Virus record (IMG/VR): IMGVR_UViG_3300032241_000156
Span: 1-20,304 of that record
Direction: 5' to 3' (one strand)
DNA: 20,304 nucleotides
Source: a virus
The translations under genes and the position numbers were made by a program. Below are positions 1 through 9,193 of the stretch, piece after piece. The notes below the pieces were generated by a model. It saw only the letters and a list, made by a program, of their open reading frames with translations, had not been told where the DNA came from and searched no databases. Every line of letters starts with the position of its first letter. Within the stretch, counting starts at the first letter, position 1.

Positions 1-2230
1 TGGCGTAACGGTCGGAATCAATCAATCCGCCATTACTATCGCTGAATCTCAAGTTACAAACCTCACCTCTGACCTTGCTGGCAAGGCTCCAACAACTCGC
101 ACAATCTCAACAACCGCACCGCTAACAGGTGGGGGAGATTTATCAGCAAATAGAACTCTTGGCGTAAACTCTGCTTCTACTTCCGCTAGTGGCGTTGTTC
201 AGTTATCTGACTCAACTTCGACAACATCTTCTACTCTCGCATCAACTCCAACGGCTACAAAAGCCGCCTACGACTTAGCGAACACCGCAAACACAACCGC
301 TAATAACGCCGTGCCTAATACCCGTACTGTTTCTACAACCTCACCTCTCGCTGGTGGCGGAGCGTTATCAGGTAACCTCACTCTCTCAGTAGGCTCAGCC
401 TCAACAACAACAAGCGGAGTCGTGCAACTTTCCGACTCGACTTCAACAGTATCTTCAACACTTGCCGCAACTTCTACCGCCGTGAAGTCTGCCTACGATC
501 TCGCCAATACTGCTAACACAACCGCTAATGCCGCAGTTCCTAACACGCGCAACATTTCAACGACCTCACCTCTCGCTGGTGGTGGAGCGTTATCCGGCAA
601 TCTCACTCTTTCCGTTGGAGCAGGAACTACCTCTGTCGCTGGCGTTGTTCAGCTCACCGACTCGACATCTTCCACCTCAACAACAACCGCCGCAACTCCC
701 AACTCCGTAGCGACTACCTACACCCTCGCCAATACTGCAAATACAACGGCGAACGCGGCTACACCTAAAACCACTTCAGTTTCAACTACCGCTCCTTTAT
801 CGGGTGGTGGTGCGTTATCAAGTAGCCTCACTCTTTCCCTCGGTTACGCTTCATCCCTCACAACCTCAGCAAACAACCTGATTGTTGATTCAACTGTTGT
901 GCCGTATCTTGCTAATGCAAATACTTTTACAAAAAATCAAATAATCAACACAGGCGCGACAACAAACATCGGGCTGATTGTCAAAGGCGCAGCAAGCCAG
1001 ACCGCAGATTTATTTGAGGCACAAAACTCCGCTTCTTCTGTACTCGCCAAAATCGACTCATCAGGCAACCTCTACGCTCCCACCCTTCAATCAACAACGG
1101 CTTCAACCGCTACCCTCACAACGAATGGGGATACGGGTGGATTGCTGATTGCTACGGGCGCAGATGCGAATAAAGGTTTGGTAATCAAGGGAAACTCAGC
1201 AACGCAATCATCTTCTGCACCAAGCCTCACAGTCTATAGAGACTCAACCAATATTGCGCTGACTGTTTCAAATCAAACTTATGCAGTAACGGCAAGCAAT
1301 TTTTATTCTCAAGGAAATGTAAATGCCGCTTTTCAAATAGGTGCAGGAAACTCGCTTCAAGGTACGCTTACGGCTAAATCTTACGCAACAACAACTGCAA
1401 ATTTGGTGTTGCAGACCATTGCTTCTCAAACTGCCGATATCATTTCCGTAACAGATTCAACTTCAACTCAGTTATTCCGCGTGAACTTCGCTGGTCAAAT
1501 CCAAGCACCTCAACCAGCCAAGCAAGCACTCATCGTCAAGGCAGCCACCACCATCACCAACTCATCGGTCACCTCTGCCGTTGGGTCGGGTTCGGCAACT
1601 GTCTTTACTTATTCCGCAACATCTCAGCTCTTTACTGTCGGTCAAACTGTTACCACAACAGGCTTCACTCCTGCGGGCTACAACGCAACAGGAACCATCA
1701 CCGCTATTGGAACTGTGACGGCTGGAACCACTTACACCTTCACCACCGCGAACACAACAACAGGAACATCCAGCGGAACGGGTACGGCTACTGTTGCTCA
1801 ATCGGTAAACATCCAAGAATGGCAGGATACGACAGGTTCGGCAATTCTGGCTTTGGCGTCAAACGGCGATTTGGTTTCATCAGGTAACCACAGTTCACGA
1901 TTTTCCTACATTCAAAATCAAGGCACATCAGGTGCTTATGTTGATTTCACCGCAACAAACAATGCGCTAACTGTTGTTCAACGACTTTCAGGAATTTTGG
2001 CTTTTGGAGTAAAAGGCGCAACAAGTCAGACCGCTGACCTCTTTCAGGCACAAAACTCCGCTGGAACTGTCCTTACTTCAATCACCTCAGCAGGAACTAT
2101 CAACTTTGCATCAGGTAACACCGCTACAACGGCAACAGCAGGAGCAATCACCGCACCATCTCAGGTTGCTGGTTACATCACCGCACAAATCGCTGGAACA
2201 ACAGTAAAGATTCCGTACTACGCAAACTAA
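1..2230 (+). CDS. Tail fibre protein built of repeats (5' end cut by window edge)
   Basis: The reading frame is open from the first bases, so only the C-terminal ~743 residues are present and no start codon is visible; the in-frame GTG at 311 lies inside a repeat and is not the start. The N-terminal part has three full 75-residue repeats and part of a fourth, with motifs like PLAGGGALSGNLTLSVG, GVVQLSDSTS and a YDLANTANTTANAA helix. These match the Phage_fiber_2 tail fibre repeat pattern (GVVQL...AATP.AVK.AYDLAN). The second half has about five copies of another repeat (VKGAASQTADLFEAQNS...DSSGNL). The C-terminus ends in an ITAQIAGTTVKIPYY-type tail, which I recall from other phage fibres. 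Composition is Ser/Thr/Ala/Gly/Asn-rich with no cysteine seen, as expected for a fibrous trimer. Probable role: adsorption or virion appendage. Its place upstream of the portal is unusual. Confidence 0.85.
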   Translation, partial: GVTVGINQSAITIAESQVTNLTSDLAGKAPTTRTISTTAPLTGGGDLSANRTLGVNSASTSASGVVQLSDSTSTTSSTLASTPTATKAAYDLANTANTTANNAVPNTRTVSTTSPLAGGGALSGNLTLSVGSASTTTSGVVQLSDSTSTVSSTLAATSTAVKSAYDLANTANTTANAAVPNTRNISTTSPLAGGGALSGNLTLSVGAGTTSVAGVVQLTDSTSSTSTTTAATPNSVATTYTLANTANTTANAATPKTTSVSTTAPLSGGGALSSSLTLSLGYASSLTTSANNLIVDSTVVPYLANANTFTKNQIINTGATTNIGLIVKGAASQTADLFEAQNSASSVLAKIDSSGNLYAPTLQSTTASTATLTTNGDTGGLLIATGADANKGLVIKGNSATQSSSAPSLTVYRDSTNIALTVSNQTYAVTASNFYSQGNVNAAFQIGAGNSLQGTLTAKSYATTTANLVLQTIASQTADIISVTDSTSTQLFRVNFAGQIQAPQPAKQALIVKAATTITNSSVTSAVGSGSATVFTYSATSQLFTVGQTVTTTGFTPAGYNATGTITAIGTVTAGTTYTFTTANTTTGTSSGTGTATVAQSVNIQEWQDTTGSAILALASNGDLVSSGNHSSRFSYIQNQGTSGAYVDFTATNNALTVVQRLSGILAFGVKGATSQTADLFQAQNSAGTVLTSITSAGTINFASGNTATTATAGAITAPSQVAGYITAQIAGTTVKIPYYAN
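89..850 (+). repeat. 225-bp (75-residue) in-frame tandem repeats of the tail fibre
   Basis: Units start at 89, 314, 539 and 764, an exact 225-base period; the fourth is cut short after the GGGALSSSLTLSLG segment. Each begins P-x-T-x-x-(I/V)-S-T-T-(S/A)-P-L-(A/T/S)-G-G-G and the full ones end in a LANTANTTAN helix. Units 2 and 3 encode the same PLAGGGALSGNLTLSVG run with different codons, so they are old repeats held by selection on the protein and not a fresh duplication. Confidence 0.9.
971..2115 (+). repeat. Five degenerate (I/V)KG...SQTAD...(D/N)S..G repeats in the tail fibre
   Basis: Copies begin near 971, 1175, 1399, 1525 and 2003. Each reads roughly (L/F)-(I/G)-V-K-G-A-x-S-Q-T-A-D-(L/I)-F-x-A-Q-N-S-x-x-x-V-L-x-x-I-x-S-x-G. 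The first and last copies are closest to each other (GAASQTADLFEAQNSAS and GATSQTADLFQAQNSAG). Spacing is irregular, and the fourth copy is split by an inserted Gly/Thr-rich beta segment between about 1559 and 1800. Confidence 0.75.
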
Positions 2231-2535: not shown

Positions 2536-4386
2536 ATGGGCTTGTTTGATCGTTTCGCTAAAGCGGTTGCTAACGAAATTGTAAAAGCACCAAATCTTCC
2601 TACTGGCGCGAACACCATGAACGAAGCACAAATGCGAGCTACTGGTGGCATCGCTCAGAATCAATACGGCTATGGAACTTCAACGCCGCTTGTTCGTGAT
2701 CCGATTATGGCGACTGTTCCATTTGCACCGGGCTTACCACTTATCCCCGGCGCACTTAATCCGCTCAATCCAGCAACAGGCAGACCAGCACCTCGCCGTT
2801 ATGAATATACCGTTGCTCAAAACATCAACATCTCTGAAAATCGACCCGTTCCTTTCAAGACGCTTCGTGCAGCAGCAGATCAAATCGATATTCTTCGTCG
2901 CTGCATTGAAGTACGAAAAGCAAAGATCACCGGTTTAGAATGGGACATCGTTCTCAGTGATGCGGCAACAGAAAGAATCGTTGCAGAGTCAGGTGGAGAT
3001 CACCTCAAAGCAATGGCGCAAGCGAGAGATCAATTTGCCGATGAGATTGCACGGCTTCGATCATTTTGGGAAACTCCCGATCCTGCTAACGGACTGTCTT
3101 TCGTCGATTGGCTGAATATGGCTATCGAAGAAATCGATGTTCTTGATGCGTGGGCAATTTGGCCTGAAATGACTGTTGGCGGCAAGATTCGCGGACTTCA
3201 AATTTTAGACGGATCGACCATAAAGCCATTATTAGATGATCGCGGTATGCGACCCGACCCATCACAAGGCCCTGCATTCCAACAAATCCTTTACGGATTC
3301 CCTCGCTCTGAATTCAACGCAACTGTTGATGATGAGCAAGCCGACGGCGAGTTTACATCCGATGAATTAGCGTATTTCGTGCGAAACCGCCGAGCAAACT
3401 CTGTGTATGGCTATCCACCTGTCGAACGCGCTTTGGCAATGGCTGATATTTATTTGCGCCGTCAGCAATGGTTACGCGCTGAATTTACCGACGGAACAAC
3501 ACCAAAATCATGGCTCGAACTTCCCGAGAACGCGAACCTCACACCTGAGCAAATTCGCGCCTATGAGAACATTTACAACGATGATCTCGCTGGACAAACC
3601 GAGCAACGAAACCGCATGAGATTCTTGCTTCCCGGTGCAAAACTTCAATTTGAAGAAGGCTACTCCGAAAAGTTTAGCGATAAACTCGACGATTATCTCA
3701 TCACTTCCATTACAGGTCACTTTGGCGTTCTTCCCACCGAAATCGGATTCTCTGGTAAAACCGGACTTGGCGGAAGCGGACACCAACAAGGCGAACAAGA
3801 AGCCGCTGAATCTATCGGCGTTATTCCCACCGCTCGCTGGATCTCTCAGATGATTTCTAATTTGTCCTATCGCTGGTTAGGTATGCCTCGTGAACTAGAA
3901 TTTCGACTTGCTCCTTCAGAGCACACTAACGACTCGGACATGGCAAAACGTGATGACATTCGCACCCGTAACGGCACGAAAACAATTAACGAAAACCGCG
4001 CTGAATTAGGCTTGCCTCTTATTGACACACCTGAAGCAGATATGCCTATCCTCGTTGCTGGTCAATCAGTTTTCTTATTTAGCCCTGATGGAATGATCTC
4101 CGCTGGAACGCCTGTTGATGAAAACGGCAACCTCGAAGAACCAGCAGAGCCAACAGAACCTGTTGCAGAACCAGCCGAGGAACCTGAAGCAAAGCCTGAA
4201 CCTGCCGCGAAATCGGCTCAAGATGAAATGAAAACATTTATCCGATGGGTTCGCAAAGGTAATTCAGGTCGCTCATTTAACTTTGAATATGTCGAGCCTA
4301 CTTACGCCGAAGTATTAAATAAATTTGTCGATGCTCACGATCTCGATGGTGCGCGTTGGTATGCCGAGCGTTATCTAGGACTCTAA
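2536..4386 (+). CDS. Portal protein
   Basis: A 616-residue protein that would form the dodecameric ring at one capsid vertex, serving as DNA gate and neck attachment point. Recognised from size, gene order (directly before a MuF protein, protease and capsid) and portal-like sequence: the IDILRRCIEVRKAKITGLEWDI segment near residues 115-136, the ILDGSTIKPLLDDRG strand-turn from residue 223, a FVRNRRANSVYGYPP segment, and the LGGSGHQQGEQEA stretch typical of portals of this type. Residues ~534-560 are a Glu/Pro/Ala-rich linker, followed by a separate ~50-residue C-terminal piece (FIRWVRKG...FNFEYVEP) that looks like a small appended domain. The start ATG has a clear AAGGAG 8 bases upstream. The TAA stop abuts the next gene's ATG, suggesting coupled translation. 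Confidence 0.9.
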   Translation: MGLFDRFAKAVANEIVKAPNLPTGANTMNEAQMRATGGIAQNQYGYGTSTPLVRDPIMATVPFAPGLPLIPGALNPLNPATGRPAPRRYEYTVAQNINISENRPVPFKTLRAAADQIDILRRCIEVRKAKITGLEWDIVLSDAATERIVAESGGDHLKAMAQARDQFADEIARLRSFWETPDPANGLSFVDWLNMAIEEIDVLDAWAIWPEMTVGGKIRGLQILDGSTIKPLLDDRGMRPDPSQGPAFQQILYGFPRSEFNATVDDEQADGEFTSDELAYFVRNRRANSVYGYPPVERALAMADIYLRRQQWLRAEFTDGTTPKSWLELPENANLTPEQIRAYENIYNDDLAGQTEQRNRMRFLLPGAKLQFEEGYSEKFSDKLDDYLITSITGHFGVLPTEIGFSGKTGLGGSGHQQGEQEAAESIGVIPTARWISQMISNLSYRWLGMPRELEFRLAPSEHTNDSDMAKRDDIRTRNGTKTINENRAELGLPLIDTPEADMPILVAGQSVFLFSPDGMISAGTPVDENGNLEEPAEPTEPVAEPAEEPEAKPEPAAKSAQDEMKTFIRWVRKGNSGRSFNFEYVEPTYAEVLNKFVDAHDLDGARWYAERYLGL

Positions 4387-5574
4387 ATGAAATGGCCAGC
4401 GCATGGCGTGACCATGAGAACTGCGGCACAACACGCCGATAAAATCCGCAAAGCATTTAACGAGGCATTTGACTCAGATGCTATTGCTGAAGCGTGGACA
4501 CAGACTCACCTCGGCACGACTACGACAACCCCACAGATGGCACGGGATTGGGCTCATATTCATATCACCATCGACAAGAAAAAACTTGCCGATATTCTGC
4601 CTAAACTTTACGCTGATGGTTATGTAATCGGTGAAAATGCTGGGGCGTATATGCTCAGCAACCTCACTCGTAATAAAGCCGTTTCTGCTGGTGTTGTTGA
4701 TTGGGATACATGGAAGCCGGGCAATCAAGCCGCGAGCGCATTACTCAAACCAAAGGGTGGATTGCAGAATCTTCTCGATAGCCGAAATGTCACAATCGAC
4801 GGGATTAGTAATACGAAACTTGACCGAATCGGCACAGTTCTTAGCAAAGCATTAGAGCAAGGCTTAACACCCAAAGACATCGCGCCAATGATTGATCAAG
4901 TTGTCGATGATCCTCAAAGTGCTTTATCAATTGCTCAAACCGAAATGAGTCGCGCCGTATCTGTTGCCTCTCGTGATCTTTATGAGAATTCGGGAGTCGA
5001 GCAGGTTGAGTGGCTGGTTGCTGAAGGTTGCGACGATTGCCAAGATAACGCCGATGCTTCTCCTATCGAGATAGACGATACTTTCCCTACAGGCGACACA
5101 GAACCACCAGCACACCCTAACTGTATGTGTGCGCTTGCACCTTACATCGATACATCCGATATCGAACTTTCCTCACAGGCTGATCTTGTTAAATTTGTAC
5201 CAAGCAAAAATGAAGTTGATCGCGCTCTTTCTCGATTAAAGATTTTGCCTAATGCACCTGAGCAAGATGAGAAAACTATCGAGGCTCCGTGGAAGCGTAT
5301 CGACCCCATTACTGTCGATCCAAACATTTGGAATACTGCGGAATTAGCACTTGTTAATCTCGCCGATCTCACCGCAACAGATGAAGTCTTAAACCGCAAG
5401 AAACTCAAAAAACATATTAAGGCGATGGGTCAAACACTTTTGCCCTTTCGCTCTTATGCGCTGATCATTCAACAAGACGATCAGTTAATCATTATTGACG
5501 GGCATCACAGATTGTTCTCTCTCTGGTTACTCGGCAATCAAACCGCTCCCGTATGGCTAGCAAAGGAATCCTAA
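4387..5574 (+). CDS. MuF-type minor head protein with C-terminal ParB-like domain
   Basis: A 395-residue protein. Residues ~90-255 match the phage head morphogenesis (Mu gpF / SPP1 gp7) domain: IAQTEMSRAVSVASRD from residue 182, then C215-x2-C218 and the terminal H243-P-N-C246-M-C248 motif, the usual Cys/His set of this family. MuF proteins bind the portal inside the head and some are injected with the DNA. After a ~50-residue linker, residues ~315-395 look like a ParB/sulfiredoxin-superfamily domain: VNLADLTATDEVLNRKKL, then a strand IIIDGHHRLFSLWLLG with D371-G-H-H-R375, then a terminal hydrophobic strand. The DGHHR form is, as I recall it, also seen in SerK-like kinases and DUF1015, so nuclease, NTPase or kinase activity are all possible. 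Start is the ATG touching the portal stop. Confidence 0.88.
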   Translation: MKWPAHGVTMRTAAQHADKIRKAFNEAFDSDAIAEAWTQTHLGTTTTTPQMARDWAHIHITIDKKKLADILPKLYADGYVIGENAGAYMLSNLTRNKAVSAGVVDWDTWKPGNQAASALLKPKGGLQNLLDSRNVTIDGISNTKLDRIGTVLSKALEQGLTPKDIAPMIDQVVDDPQSALSIAQTEMSRAVSVASRDLYENSGVEQVEWLVAEGCDDCQDNADASPIEIDDTFPTGDTEPPAHPNCMCALAPYIDTSDIELSSQADLVKFVPSKNEVDRALSRLKILPNAPEQDEKTIEAPWKRIDPITVDPNIWNTAELALVNLADLTATDEVLNRKKLKKHIKAMGQTLLPFRSYALIIQQDDQLIIIDGHHRLFSLWLLGNQTAPVWLAKES

Positions 5575-5868: not shown

Positions 5869-7500
5869 ATGGCACATGATTTTACAAGCGCGTATGCCGC
5901 GATTATCAAGGCAGACGAAAACGAAGATGGCACAATGACTGTCTACGGCAAAGCAACAGATGACTCGATTGATTCCGATAATCAGATTTGCGATGCCACT
6001 TGGTTAGATCGCGCTATGCCTGAATGGATGAAGTCTGGTGGAAACATTAGGGAACAACATTCGAACATCGCCGCTGGTGTTGCGACAGAACTTGAAAGCA
6101 AATCTGACGGGCATTACATCTCAGCTCTTGTCGTTGATCCTGTATCTGTCAAGAAAGTCAAGGCTGGCGTATTAAAAGGCTTCTCTATCGGTATTAAGGC
6201 ACCACGCGTTGTCCGAGATCAAAAAGCCGCAAATGGTCGCATTATTGACGGGCAGATTATCGAGGTTTCTCTCGTTGATCGACCTGCTAATCCCAACGCC
6301 AAATTGATCATGGCAAAGAGTGTCGAAGGTGAACCCACCCTGACACAAGTCGAGGAGTTTCACGAATACTCAGCACCGCTTCCTACTGATCTTTTCAAGC
6401 GAGAAGTATCAGACACCGAGCGTGAACGGCTAGCAGATCGTGGAGCGGCAATGCCTGACGGGTCATACCCCATCGCAAATGTCGAGGATCTCAAGAACGC
6501 TATCCAAGCATTTGGTCGCGCTAAGAATCCTGCAAAAGTTAAACAACACATTATCCGACGCGCTCGCGCATTGGGAGCAACAAATCTATTACCCGAGAAA
6601 TGGACAGAATCAATGAAAAAAGCAGAACAAATCATTGAGCGAGCCAAAGCCGTTGGAGCAGACTTATCTAAGTTTGACCAAGCAACTTTCGATGCCGCTC
6701 GAACCGCACTAGCCCAATTGTTTATCGTTGAGGCTCAAGAGTTAGCACAAGGCGAAGATGAGCGCGATTCATTCGAGCACCTTCTCGATGCTCTTGATGG
6801 TCTGATGGACTGGTACGAGAACGAAGCCGATGAAGGTGAAGTTGCTCCCTCATTCGACGGGCAAACTATCGAGATGTCCGCAAAGGCTGATGATTGCGAT
6901 TGCAAGTGCGACAAGTGCATGAAGTCTGAAGGATGCGACTCCAAAGAGTGCAAGTGTGCTTCGATGAAATCTGCTGACCTCGAGCCTGATGCTGAGAAGT
7001 CTGTTCACAAGTGCCTTGAGTGCGGTTGTAATCTTCCTGCCGAAGATCATGGGCGCGATGATGTCACTACCGCTGAGATGGTTGATCCCCAAGACAACGC
7101 CGGTAGCGAAGATGAAGAAAAGGATTCTGAAGATGATGCTTCAGAAAAAAGCGCAACGATTGAAAGCATCGTTGAACTAGCCGTTAAGTCTGCTATGAAG
7201 TCGGTCGAAGCCGAGATTGCTTCTCTAAAGTCTGCAAAAGAGGCAGCTGAAGAAAAGTCAGTAAAACTTGAAACCGAGTTAGCAACGGCATTAACAAAAA
7301 CAGTTGCAGGTGGCCCCAAGCGCACCGCAACAAAATACTCCAACGAGGCGCAAAACGATCTACTCGTCAAGGCGATGGACTATAAAGCCAAAGCCGATGC
7401 CTCAACCGACCCTCTCCTTGTCAAGGGATACCTCGGTCTTTACGCTGACTTCATGAAGAAGGCTGGTAAAGATGTCGTGGTTGCCGTAGACGACGAGTAA
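5869..7500 (+). CDS. Prohead protease fused to DUF6582-like, Cys-rich and coiled-coil regions
   Basis: A 543-residue protein. Residues ~1-150 look like an HK97-type (S21-like) or XkdF-like prohead protease: GNIREQH64, GVLKGFS106IGIK and IIDGQIIE132VSLVDRPANP; H64 and S106 are the likely catalytic pair. Residues ~185-246 carry a GAAMPDGSYPIANVEDLKNA...HIIRRARALG...LPEKW segment matching the DUF6582 pattern often found beside phage proteases. Residues 343-387 hold ten cysteines in 45 residues, a possible metal-binding knot. Residues ~430-478 are a Lys/Glu/Ala coiled coil, followed by a short C-terminal tail. With no separate scaffold gene before the capsid gene, the C-terminal half may act as scaffold; this is inference. 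The start ATG has AAGGAG 8 bases upstream. Confidence 0.85.
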   Translation: MAHDFTSAYAAIIKADENEDGTMTVYGKATDDSIDSDNQICDATWLDRAMPEWMKSGGNIREQHSNIAAGVATELESKSDGHYISALVVDPVSVKKVKAGVLKGFSIGIKAPRVVRDQKAANGRIIDGQIIEVSLVDRPANPNAKLIMAKSVEGEPTLTQVEEFHEYSAPLPTDLFKREVSDTERERLADRGAAMPDGSYPIANVEDLKNAIQAFGRAKNPAKVKQHIIRRARALGATNLLPEKWTESMKKAEQIIERAKAVGADLSKFDQATFDAARTALAQLFIVEAQELAQGEDERDSFEHLLDALDGLMDWYENEADEGEVAPSFDGQTIEMSAKADDCDCKCDKCMKSEGCDSKECKCASMKSADLEPDAEKSVHKCLECGCNLPAEDHGRDDVTTAEMVDPQDNAGSEDEEKDSEDDASEKSATIESIVELAVKSAMKSVEAEIASLKSAKEAAEEKSVKLETELATALTKTVAGGPKRTATKYSNEAQNDLLVKAMDYKAKADASTDPLLVKGYLGLYADFMKKAGKDVVVAVDDE

Positions 7501-7525: not shown

Positions 7526-9193
7526 ATGGCATTAGTAAGCCCAAAGGCTTCTGACCTTTTCGGTGAAGTGAAGCCGAAGAAAGCAGCAGAGTTAATGGAC
7601 TCCTACATGGGAGAACTTAACAAAGCACTTTCTAACCCTTCATCAGTTCCCGGACAGGCTCCAGCCGCTCCCGTAGATTCACAAATCGAAGCATTGATGG
7701 CAAACAAGTCTTTGTCACCCGATGCTATCGGTTCACTTAATGCAGCACTTGCTTCACAACGAACTGCAACTGCTGACATCATCAAAGACATCACACTCAC
7801 CACACCACTTTCAACCTCTTTCGCAGCGTTTGATCTCGAGGCACCAGCAAAGATGCTTACCCCTCGACCTACACCACTTCGCAACAAGATCGCTCGTAAG
7901 AAGGGTGTCGGTACTTCACACCGCATCAAGCGCATCACAGGTTACACAGGTACCGGAACTGGTGGACAAGGTCAGATTTGGCCGGGCATCAACGAAGGTT
8001 CTTACAACCAATTTGGTCAGATTAACTATGAGCGTGGAGCAAAAATCTCCTACACCGCTGACGATAAGATTTTCCCTTATTTCAGCTACTCACTTTCTGA
8101 CTCTGTAAGTTTTGATGCTAACTTCTCAGGTCTTGGTTATCAAGATCTTCGTCAGTTGTCATCAACATCAACACTTTATGCAACAATGTTGATGGAAGAG
8201 CGTATGTTGCTTATGTCACGCGGAACAACCGGTAACGGATTCTCTGGCGCACTTACAGCACCTACTTTCTCAACTGCACACCCATCAGCAGGAACAAATC
8301 AATCTGCTCTTACTGCTACTACTTACTATGTAAATGTAACTGCCGACGCTGGTGTTTCTAGCGCAGGCTTCGGTGAGTCTGTCGTTGGATCTGAAGCAAC
8401 TGTTGCTGTTTCTGCCGGTCAGGTTCTCACAGTTACAATTTCAACTCCTGTTGCTGGCGCACTTGGTTACAACATTTATGTTGGTACAACCTCAGGCGCA
8501 GAAACATATCAGGGAACACTTCGCGGAACTGGTACTGTCACCATTGGCGGAACTGGTACAAGCACAAGTGCAACTCAGTTTGTTTACTCAACAACAAGCG
8601 CATCAATTACACGCGCTGCATCTGATACATCTGCTTATTCAACTGGATATGACGGAATTCTTGCTACCTTGTTGAACACCTCAAATGGTGCTTCTATTAA
8701 CGCAATCAACTCCACATTTTCAACATCAAATCCCGGTGTTGAATTCCAGAATGTATTTGCTAACTTGTATAACAACACTAAGGCTGATCCTGATGAGATT
8801 CTTCTCAACGGATTTGACCGCAAGCAGTTGTCCGATGCAATTAAGAATGGCTCAACCGCTAACTATCGTTTGAATCTTGCGCAAGCAGATACTGGCGATT
8901 ATGTTGGTGGCGCAGTTATTGGTGGACTACACAACGAGACAACTGGAAAGCTCGTCGATTTGACAGTTCACCCTTGGCTTCCACAAGGCGTTAGCCCCGT
9001 TCTTTCTTACACATTGCCAATCCCTGACACAGAAGTTTCTGATGTTTGGGCGGTTTACAATGTTCAGGATTACATGGGTATCCAATGGCCTGTTACACAA
9101 TTTGCTTACGAATTTTCTACTTATTTCCGTGGAACATTCGTATCTTATGCACCTTCCTTCAACGGAATCGTTACAGGAATTCAAACCGCATAA
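7526..9193 (+). CDS. Major capsid protein with Ig/FN3-like insertion
   Basis: A 555-residue protein, the presumed HK97-fold shell subunit. Placement directly after the protease, a likely removable N-terminal helical region (to about residue 95), and LTPRPTPLRNKIARKKG followed by RITGYTGTGTGGQG resemble capsid proteins of this type. The C-terminal domain has VEFQNVFANLYNNTKADPDEILLNG, GLHNETTGKLVDLTVHPWLP and a final beta-rich segment. Residues ~264-345 read as an inserted beta domain: TYYVNVTADAGVSSAGFGES, then VLTVTISTPVAGALGYNIYVG, a fibronectin/Ig-like strand pattern, probably displayed on the capsid surface. The insertion is in frame with no frameshift needed. The start ATG follows AAAGGA. 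A hairpin terminator follows the stop. Confidence 0.88.
   Translation: MALVSPKASDLFGEVKPKKAAELMDSYMGELNKALSNPSSVPGQAPAAPVDSQIEALMANKSLSPDAIGSLNAALASQRTATADIIKDITLTTPLSTSFAAFDLEAPAKMLTPRPTPLRNKIARKKGVGTSHRIKRITGYTGTGTGGQGQIWPGINEGSYNQFGQINYERGAKISYTADDKIFPYFSYSLSDSVSFDANFSGLGYQDLRQLSSTSTLYATMLMEERMLLMSRGTTGNGFSGALTAPTFSTAHPSAGTNQSALTATTYYVNVTADAGVSSAGFGESVVGSEATVAVSAGQVLTVTISTPVAGALGYNIYVGTTSGAETYQGTLRGTGTVTIGGTGTSTSATQFVYSTTSASITRAASDTSAYSTGYDGILATLLNTSNGASINAINSTFSTSNPGVEFQNVFANLYNNTKADPDEILLNGFDRKQLSDAIKNGSTANYRLNLAQADTGDYVGGAVIGGLHNETTGKLVDLTVHPWLPQGVSPVLSYTLPIPDTEVSDVWAVYNVQDYMGIQWPVTQFAYEFSTYFRGTFVSYAPSFNGIVTGIQTA

What the first reader, a model, noticed from the sequence alone, without database searches (positions are those of the whole stretch)
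4387..5574. MuF minor head protein with a ParB-like C-terminal domain
The sequence shows a complete MuF domain (IAQTEMSR, C215-x2-C218, HPNC246-M-C248) followed by an ~80-residue ParB/Srx-superfamily-like segment with D371-G-H-H-R375. MuF proteins are packaged with the portal and some enter the host with the DNA, and C-terminal effector domains on MuF proteins are an established theme in phage polyvalent and toxin-like proteins. A ParB-like domain delivered at infection could bind or cut DNA, use a nucleotide, or phosphorylate something. Which one is unknown.
Basis: partly seen in the sequence, partly recalled or inferred. Interest (0 to 1): 0.62.

Follow-up and report, generated by a model that had tools for sequence, protein, structure and literature searches.

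The report
ParB-fold module at phage portal vertex
This phage head protein carries a conserved nucleotide-binding-type domain that related phages attach to one of three neighbouring head genes (MuF, the portal, or a small gene of its own), so it looks like an optional working part of the virus particle's DNA gate rather than one of the swapped toxins found beside it.

Summary
ORF 4387-5574 is a MuF protein. Its C-terminus (residues ~268-395) is a separate module with a ParB/sulfiredoxin fold (AlphaFold2, all five models pLDDT 87-89; every listed PDB match belongs to that superfamily) and D371-G-H-H-R375 invariant in all 51 aligned relatives.

It is not a plain part of MuF: close relatives end at residue ~260. 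Nor is it one of the swapped MuF toxins. About 55 distinct uncultured copies show three placements: C-terminus of MuF, a stand-alone gene just after a MuF that carries another effector (e.g. ADP-ribosyltransferase, papain-fold deamidase), or inside the portal protein's C-terminal linker. Where effectors swap, they swap between MuF and the module, which stays. Module dN/dS is 0.07-0.20.

The architecture exists in cultured Stenotrophomonas phages DLP_3/DLP_5/Summit, labelled only "ParB-like nuclease". DLP3's copy was found in purified particles by mass spectrometry and set aside as possible contamination; the MuF domain found here explains it.

Best reading: an optional virion module, held inside the head at the portal vertex, with an intact nucleotide-phosphate pocket. 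Its reaction and target are untested. It lacks the defining residues of ParB CTPase, sulfiredoxin and serine kinase.

The parts
4387..5574 (+). MuF minor head protein with C-terminal ParB/Srx-fold module, 395 aa
   Evidence: ORF and translation; Pfam and PHROG hits
4825..5136 (+). MuF domain, residues 147-250 (PF04233)
   Evidence: 30.1 bits against cut-off 29.6; 59% identity to L002, whose MuF ends right after it
5188..5337 (+). conserved N-terminal extension of the module, residues 268-317 (VPSxxEV..ALSRLxxLPN...V[ED][SA]PW)
   Evidence: present in 49 of 51 aligned module sequences, W302 and W315 invariant; pLDDT about 86-94 from residue 271 on
5338..5571 (+). ParB/sulfiredoxin-fold core, residues 318-395
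   Evidence: AlphaFold2; Foldseek/VIA-align matches to Srx, SerK, SbnI, ParB and Noc over model residues 52/58-135
5497..5511 (+). D371-G-H-H-R375 pocket motif
   Evidence: invariant in 51 of 51 and 55 of 55 relatives
2536..4386 (+). portal protein, partner gene directly upstream; in one clade of relatives the module is embedded in this protein
   Evidence: PF04860 E 9.9e-12; portal-embedded modules L118-L153
5575..5856 (+). 93-aa gene directly downstream; missing together with the module in L006
   Evidence: breakpoints in L006 against L086
5869..7500 (+). prohead protease / scaffold-like protein, next gene of the head cassette
   Evidence: PF04586 weak, phrog_80 head maturation protease 2.7e-10
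7526..9193 (+). probable major capsid protein of the same head cassette
   Evidence: phrog_13692 (function unknown) 8.8e-87; role inferred from gene order

Best explanation
The C-terminus is an optional virion module of the ParB/Srx superfamily that phages of this group anchor at the inner face of the portal vertex, either by fusing it to MuF (which binds the portal in SPP1), by fusing it into the portal's own C-terminal linker, or as a small gene beside them. SHOWN by sequence: the fold, the invariant DGHHR pocket with conserved R337 and R355, purifying selection, the three placements, and separation from the swapped MuF effectors. SHOWN elsewhere by mass spectrometry: a MuF-ParB protein is in particle preparations of cultured phage DLP3. 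INFERRED: the pocket binds a nucleotide or phosphate, as the equivalent motif does in sulfiredoxin, SerK and Osa. Most likely the domain acts while still held at the portal vertex, as an NTP-binding or phosphoryl-transfer/nuclease-type domain working on DNA or on head proteins during packaging, DNA retention or the start of ejection, rather than as an exchangeable toxin released into the host.
For: Fold: (pLDDT 88.6, five models agree). Pocket: DGHHR 51/51, R355 51/51, R337 R or K in 51/51. Placement: about 19 MuF-fused, 9 stand-alone and 27 portal-embedded distinct sequences; exactly one copy in each of 10 contigs of 25-40 kb that have it, none in 8 others. Portal placement is one clade (SH-aLRT 99); MuF placement needs at least four changes. 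Swap anatomy: in L111/L113 and L116/L120 the flanks are 79-92% identical up to the end of MuF and again from the module start, while effector plus the N-terminus of the module gene are exchanged. L006/L086: module plus 93-aa gene (722 nt) against 12 nt in otherwise 83-90% identical DNA. dN/dS 0.07-0.20, like MuF. Independent cases: DLP_5 gene 003, MuF plus module, between portal and XkdF protease; DLP3 gp2 in particles, 8 unique peptides (PMC7326821); Rhizobium phages fuse the domain to XkdF protease downstream of MuF. SPP1 gp7 (MuF) binds the portal and enters the procapsid (PMC6316719).
Against: No activity has been measured for any member. Portal embedding does not exclude release by the prohead protease, and MuF-fused copies could be ejected with DNA. 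The module is absent from many close relatives, so it is not essential for assembly. The DLP3 ghosts held some host proteins, and their LiCl preparation does not mimic natural ejection. The DLP MuF domain is far from this one (27.5 bits, just under Pfam's cut-off), so that case shows recurrence, not orthology.
Confidence: 0.5

Rival explanations
1. Injected early effector: MuF (or proteolytic release from portal) delivers the ParB-like domain with the DNA, where it acts as an NTP-regulated nuclease, kinase or anti-defence factor in the host.
For: MuF C-terminal effectors are an established theme (PMC5576092, PMC5512222); [quoted passage not shown] neighbouring MuF proteins in this very family carry ADP-ribosyltransferase and papain-fold deamidase tails.
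Against: The module is constant while effectors are exchanged next to it, coexists with them as a separate gene, and is built into the portal in a whole clade.
Confidence: 0.33
2. Degenerate, purely structural use of the fold: a DNA- or protein-docking domain at the portal vertex without catalysis or nucleotide binding.
For: Catalytic residues of the known enzymes are missing (Srx Cys is H373; SerK E30 position is variable; ParB GERR is DGHHR). The N-terminal extension is strongly conserved too, suggesting a docking role.
Against: DGHHR and R355 are invariant, and R337 nearly so, across 51 sequences at 59% mean column identity.
Confidence: 0.15
3. Polymorphic toxin of the MuF class with immunity protein.
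For: MuF context; Tox-ParB domains exist in other polymorphic toxins (PMC3482391).
Against: The module itself does not vary; no obvious immunity gene follows it (next are a 93-aa gene and the protease gene); PMC3482391 lists Tox-ParB with other delivery systems but not MuF.
Confidence: 0.07
4. Chance resemblance or misassembly.
For: Single-sequence ParB hit is sub-threshold.
Against: About 55 distinct copies from independent contigs, all with DGHHR, and low dN/dS in the pairs tested.
Confidence: 0.01

Closest known systems
Stenotrophomonas phages DLP_3, DLP_5 and Summit, 'ParB-like nuclease domain protein' (DLP3 gp2, 445 aa)
   Same: Directly after the portal gene; MuF domain then ParB-like tail with DGHHR; the window's module profile aligns over positions 4-126 of 130 of DLP_5 gene 003 (E 1.6e-8 at Z=20000); DLP3 gp2 found in particles (PMC7326821)
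   Different: MuF part is very diverged, conserved LPN...ESPW extension not evident, not described as MuF in the DLP3 paper's domain tables
Rhizobium phages RHph_TM3_3_9 and kin, ParB plus XkdF protease fusion (245 aa)
   Same: DGHHR ParB-like domain in the head cassette just downstream of MuF
   Different: Fused to the prohead protease (PF14550 2.2e-7), not to MuF or portal; no N-terminal extension
Free serine kinase SerK and SbnI
   Same: Same fold; SerK has the same DGHHR motif; best sequence matches in the PDB
   Different: SerK catalytic E30 position is variable here; these are metabolic enzymes with additional sequence beyond the ParB-like core
Osa and P1 DdrB-like ParB domains
   Same: ParB/Srx fold in mobile-element proteins; Osa reported as ATPase and DNase; DdrB incorporated in the P1 head (PMC5512222)
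   Different: Weak structural match to Osa (Z 4.1-4.5); no Pfam hit to a DdrB-type family; no large polyvalent protein here
MuF polymorphic toxins
   Same: MuF N-terminus with a C-terminal added domain next to the portal gene
   Different: Module constant, also found in portal and as its own gene, coexisting with effector tails
ParB-CTPase fold fusions surveyed in PMC12704722
   Same: ParB fold reused by fusion; several bind CTP, ATP or GTP
   Different: Main text of that survey never mentions MuF or portal; it used PF02195, which was not among this module's Pfam hits

Membership tests
MuF minor head protein (PF04233) | MuF domain above curated cut-off, gene directly after portal | tested here: met
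   30.1 bits against 29.6; portal 2536-4386 directly upstream
ParB/sulfiredoxin fold superfamily | alpha+beta ParB/Srx fold | tested here: met
   VIA Z 8.6-8.8 to sulfiredoxin 6ky4 (rmsd 1.9-2.0, 74-76 aligned), 7.7 SerK; all listed matches in the superfamily; Foldseek best E 1.7e-3 to 4.8e-3
ParBc_2 (PF08857) | score above gathering cut-off 23.6 | tested here: not met
   17.7 bits for the window module; 47 of 51 relatives hit at E <= 0.1, best 1.1e-4
Canonical ParB CTPase clamp | GERR phosphate motif plus HTH and dimerisation domains | tested here: not met
   DGHHR in all 51; protein ends 20 residues after the motif, leaving no room for HTH and dimerisation domains
Sulfiredoxin | catalytic Cys in F-G-G-C-H-R | tested here: not met
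   aligned position is H373, invariant; motif equivalence as argued for the related DGQQR motif in PMC4619093
Free serine kinase SerK | catalytic Glu30 and DGHHR | tested here: not met
   DGHHR present; the E30 position (about residue 333) is T/E/K/P/Q; role of E30 from own knowledge and the PDB mutant titles
MuF polymorphic toxin | variable C-terminal toxin domain with adjacent immunity gene | tested here: not met
   module conserved across swaps and placements; no obvious immunity gene next to it
DdrB-like ParB of polyvalent proteins | DdrB-specific residues and extra helix | tested here: inconclusive
   no such family in the Pfam hits; HMMER may miss distant kin
Osa-like NTP-regulated DNase | ATPase and DNase activity | not testable with these tools
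   needs purified protein
Virion protein | present in purified particles | not testable with these tools
   only indirect: DLP3 gp2, same architecture, 8 unique peptides, 20% coverage (PMC7326821)

The most novel reading that the evidence does not exclude
A dedicated portal-vertex enzyme: a ParB/Srx-fold nucleotide-binding domain that works inside phage heads (sensing or spending NTP, or processing DNA ends) and that phages relocate between portal, MuF, prohead protease and a stand-alone gene. This would be a previously unrecognised functional part of the DNA packaging/ejection machine.
Probability: 0.25. Interest if true: 0.8.

Novelty: new variant of a known kind. Interest (0 to 1): 0.52.

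Why it matters
Domains glued to MuF are usually read as toxins or effectors injected into the host. Here the same domain is found on MuF, in the portal and alone (and a related one on a prohead protease in other phages), while the real effectors are exchanged around it. That points to a working part at the DNA gate with a nucleotide-type pocket, which could be tested directly in cultured DLP-type phages. It also offers an explanation for an existing mass-spectrometry result that its authors found surprising, and suggests relabelling some 'ParB-like nuclease' and 'DNA methyltransferase' genes in phage head cassettes.

Tried and rejected
Tail alone (98 aa) against IMG/VR and cultured phages by single sequence: nothing; an alignment was needed. 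Spectrin hit PF24615 is a one-member artefact. The AlphaFold model from 11 sequences was fragile (85, 67, 44, 44, 42), so it was repeated with 51 (88.6-86.8). Vibrio phage genes at the MuF position (V-YDF132, labelled 'ParB-like nuclease'; KarBoss homologue) were checked: no DGHHR and no module match, so the V-YDF132 label was apparently transferred through MuF similarity. 9NA gp37 'DNA methyltransferase' lies at an XkdF-like match and is only 137 aa. HCTV-5 gp114 carries a DGHHR ParB domain in a polyvalent-type protein, not in a MuF gene. A possible frameshift joining MuF-ART to the module in L035 was considered; an ordinary ATGA overlap suffices. The LPN...ESPW extension was not found outside modules in the fetched loci. 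The genome scan gave one phage-like contig in a Phenylobacterium MAG (L160) and a weak archaeal match; host not established.

Full report
OBSERVATION. The window is a 20,304-base uncultured virus contig. ORF 4387-5574 encodes 395 aa, starting right after the portal gene (2536-4386) and ending right before a 93-aa gene. MuF is confirmed by Pfam (30.1 bits, cut-off 29.6, residues 147-250) and by several PHROG minor-head families. The ParB signal in the single sequence is weak (E 0.017).

THE TAIL IS A SEPARATE MODULE. The first relative found (L002) shares 59% identity over MuF and stops after it. Scans with portal, MuF and tail alignments gave about 160 loci, some overlapping. MuF proteins in these loci end near residue 260, or carry the window's tail, or carry quite different tails. 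The tail family (alignment A5, 51 rows) keeps W302, W315, L328, I344, G348, R355, I369, D371-G-H-H-R375, W380 and G383 in every sequence. The conserved unit starts near residue 268, so it is about 128 residues, with an N-terminal extension before the ParB core. Pairwise dN/dS, where it could be computed, is 0.07-0.20 in the module and 0.07-0.18 in MuF. It is therefore kept by selection.

FOLD. AlphaFold2 on A5 gives pLDDT 88.6, pTM 0.83, with five models at 86.8-88.6. Foldseek and VIA-align return only ParB/Srx superfamily entries among the listed matches: sulfiredoxin (Z 8.6-8.8), SerK 7.7, Noc 7.7-7.8, ParB, SbnI, Osa. Foldseek E-values are modest (1.7e-3 at best), as expected for an 80-residue core; the uniformity of the list, not any one score, carries the claim. 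By sequence the profile finds SerK and SbnI first in the PDB.

THREE PLACEMENTS. The same module, extension included (the distant L155 and L157 aside), lies (a) at the C-terminus of MuF (window, L003-L005, L007, L008, L014, L015, L083-L086, L102, L106, L110, L112, L132, L134, L145, L160; distant L155), (b) in a small gene just after a MuF that bears another tail (L035, L111, L113, L116, L120, L126, L137, L157), or (c) inside the portal protein between its core and its conserved C-terminal segment (L118, L119, L121-L125, L127-L131, L133, L135 and others). Distinct sequences number about 19, 9 and 27; a few of the last are on truncated portals at contig ends. Among 18 contigs searched whole, ten have exactly one copy and eight have none (contigs may be incomplete). 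On a portal tree the portal-embedded form is one clade (SH-aLRT 99), while the MuF-fused form needs at least four changes.

EFFECTORS ARE SOMETHING ELSE. MuF tails in relatives include ADP-ribosyltransferases (PF03496, up to 3.5e-21) and papain-fold glutamine deamidase (PF15644). Others show HExxH-type (L055, L059, L068, L111) and RelA/SpoT-like (L033, L049, L099, L137) sequence features that I read by eye only; Pfam gave no support for them. In two close pairs (L111/L113, L116/L120) the DNA is 79-92% identical up to the end of MuF and again from the start of the module, and what differs is the effector plus the N-terminus of the module's gene. So effectors are inserted or exchanged between MuF and the module. 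In the pair L006/L086, 722 nt holding module and 93-aa gene correspond to 12 nt, so the module can also be lost or gained cleanly.

CULTURED COUNTERPARTS. Stenotrophomonas phage DLP_5 gene 003 lies between portal and XkdF protease and is annotated only as a ParB-like nuclease. Its residues 178-275 match MuF (27.5 bits, just under the cut-off; PHROG minor head protein 2.9e-16) and 361-427 match ParBc_2 (22.8 bits). The A5 profile matches residues 308-425 (E 1.6e-8 at Z=20000). The DLP3 homologue gp2 (75% identical) was detected in ghost particles with 8 unique peptides and 20% coverage; the authors called it surprising and suspected contamination (PMC7326821). The MuF domain offers a simpler explanation. 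Nine Rhizobium phages fuse a DGHHR ParB-like domain to an XkdF protease downstream of MuF. Thus the fold recurs in head cassettes of distantly related phages, not only in this uncultured group.

HOW IT MOST LIKELY WORKS. SPP1 gp7 (MuF) binds the portal, is carried into the procapsid in few copies, and raises infectivity (PMC6316719). Portal C-termini face the head interior in known portals (own knowledge). All three placements can therefore put the module at the same spot, the inner portal vertex (inference). The DGHHR motif corresponds to the ATP-phosphate-binding GCHR of sulfiredoxin, as argued for the related DGQQR motif (PMC4619093), and the fold is a general NTP-binding module (PMC12704722). 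I therefore favour an NTP- or phosphate-binding domain acting at the vertex, and rank injection as an early effector second. The exact reaction cannot be called: the catalytic residues that define sulfiredoxin, SerK and ParB CTPases are each absent.

KNOWN OR NEW. MuF proteins with extra domains and ParB-fold fusions are both known kinds. The MuF-ParB architecture is already in deposited genomes, apparently unrecognised as such. I found no report of the portal-embedded form or of the three-way placement, within the open-access library searched, which misses many papers. Verdict: new variant of a known kind, interest 0.52.

Noticed in passing
L120:1548-2270 and L126:4710-5408: The stand-alone module gene that follows a MuF with a papain-fold deamidase tail has an extra ~90-aa N-terminal domain (immunity-like by position, only a weak PepSY hit); possible immunity domain fused to the module.
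   Followed up: partly
MuF C-termini in L033, L035, L045, L047, L048, L049, L055, L059, L063, L067, L068, L081, L096, L099, L111, L113, L116, L120, L125, L126, L129, L137, L157: A rich set of effector-like tails on MuF in uncultured phages of one portal lineage: ADP-ribosyltransferase, papain-fold deamidase, HExxH metallopeptidase-like, RelA/SpoT-like, and several without any convincing Pfam hit.
   Followed up: partly
window 5869-7500: The protease/scaffold-like protein has a cysteine-rich stretch (CDCKCDKCMKSEGCDSKECKC ... CLECGC) between protease and scaffold parts, also present in L002 and L035; possible metal-binding segment in a scaffold.
   Followed up: no
window 311-2230: 639-aa Ser/Thr/Ala-rich, internally repeated protein upstream of the portal, where a terminase would be expected.
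   Followed up: no
L164:3854-4591 (Rhizobium phage RHph_TM3_3_9): ParB-like plus XkdF protease fusion annotated as DNA methyltransferase/prohead protease; the methyltransferase label seems wrong and is spread over XkdF-like genes of 9NA-like phages.
   Followed up: partly
L162:2498-6379 (HCTV-5 gp114): Zeta-toxin/ParB polyvalent-type protein of a haloarchaeal virus holds two copies of a LPLASESPDPERERVDAPW segment reminiscent of the module's LPN...VESPW extension, away from its ParB core; the match is not significant.
   Followed up: no
L167:2504-3601: Vibrio phage V-YDF132 gene labelled 'ParB-like nuclease' has no DGHHR and no module match; probably mislabelled through its MuF part.
   Followed up: yes
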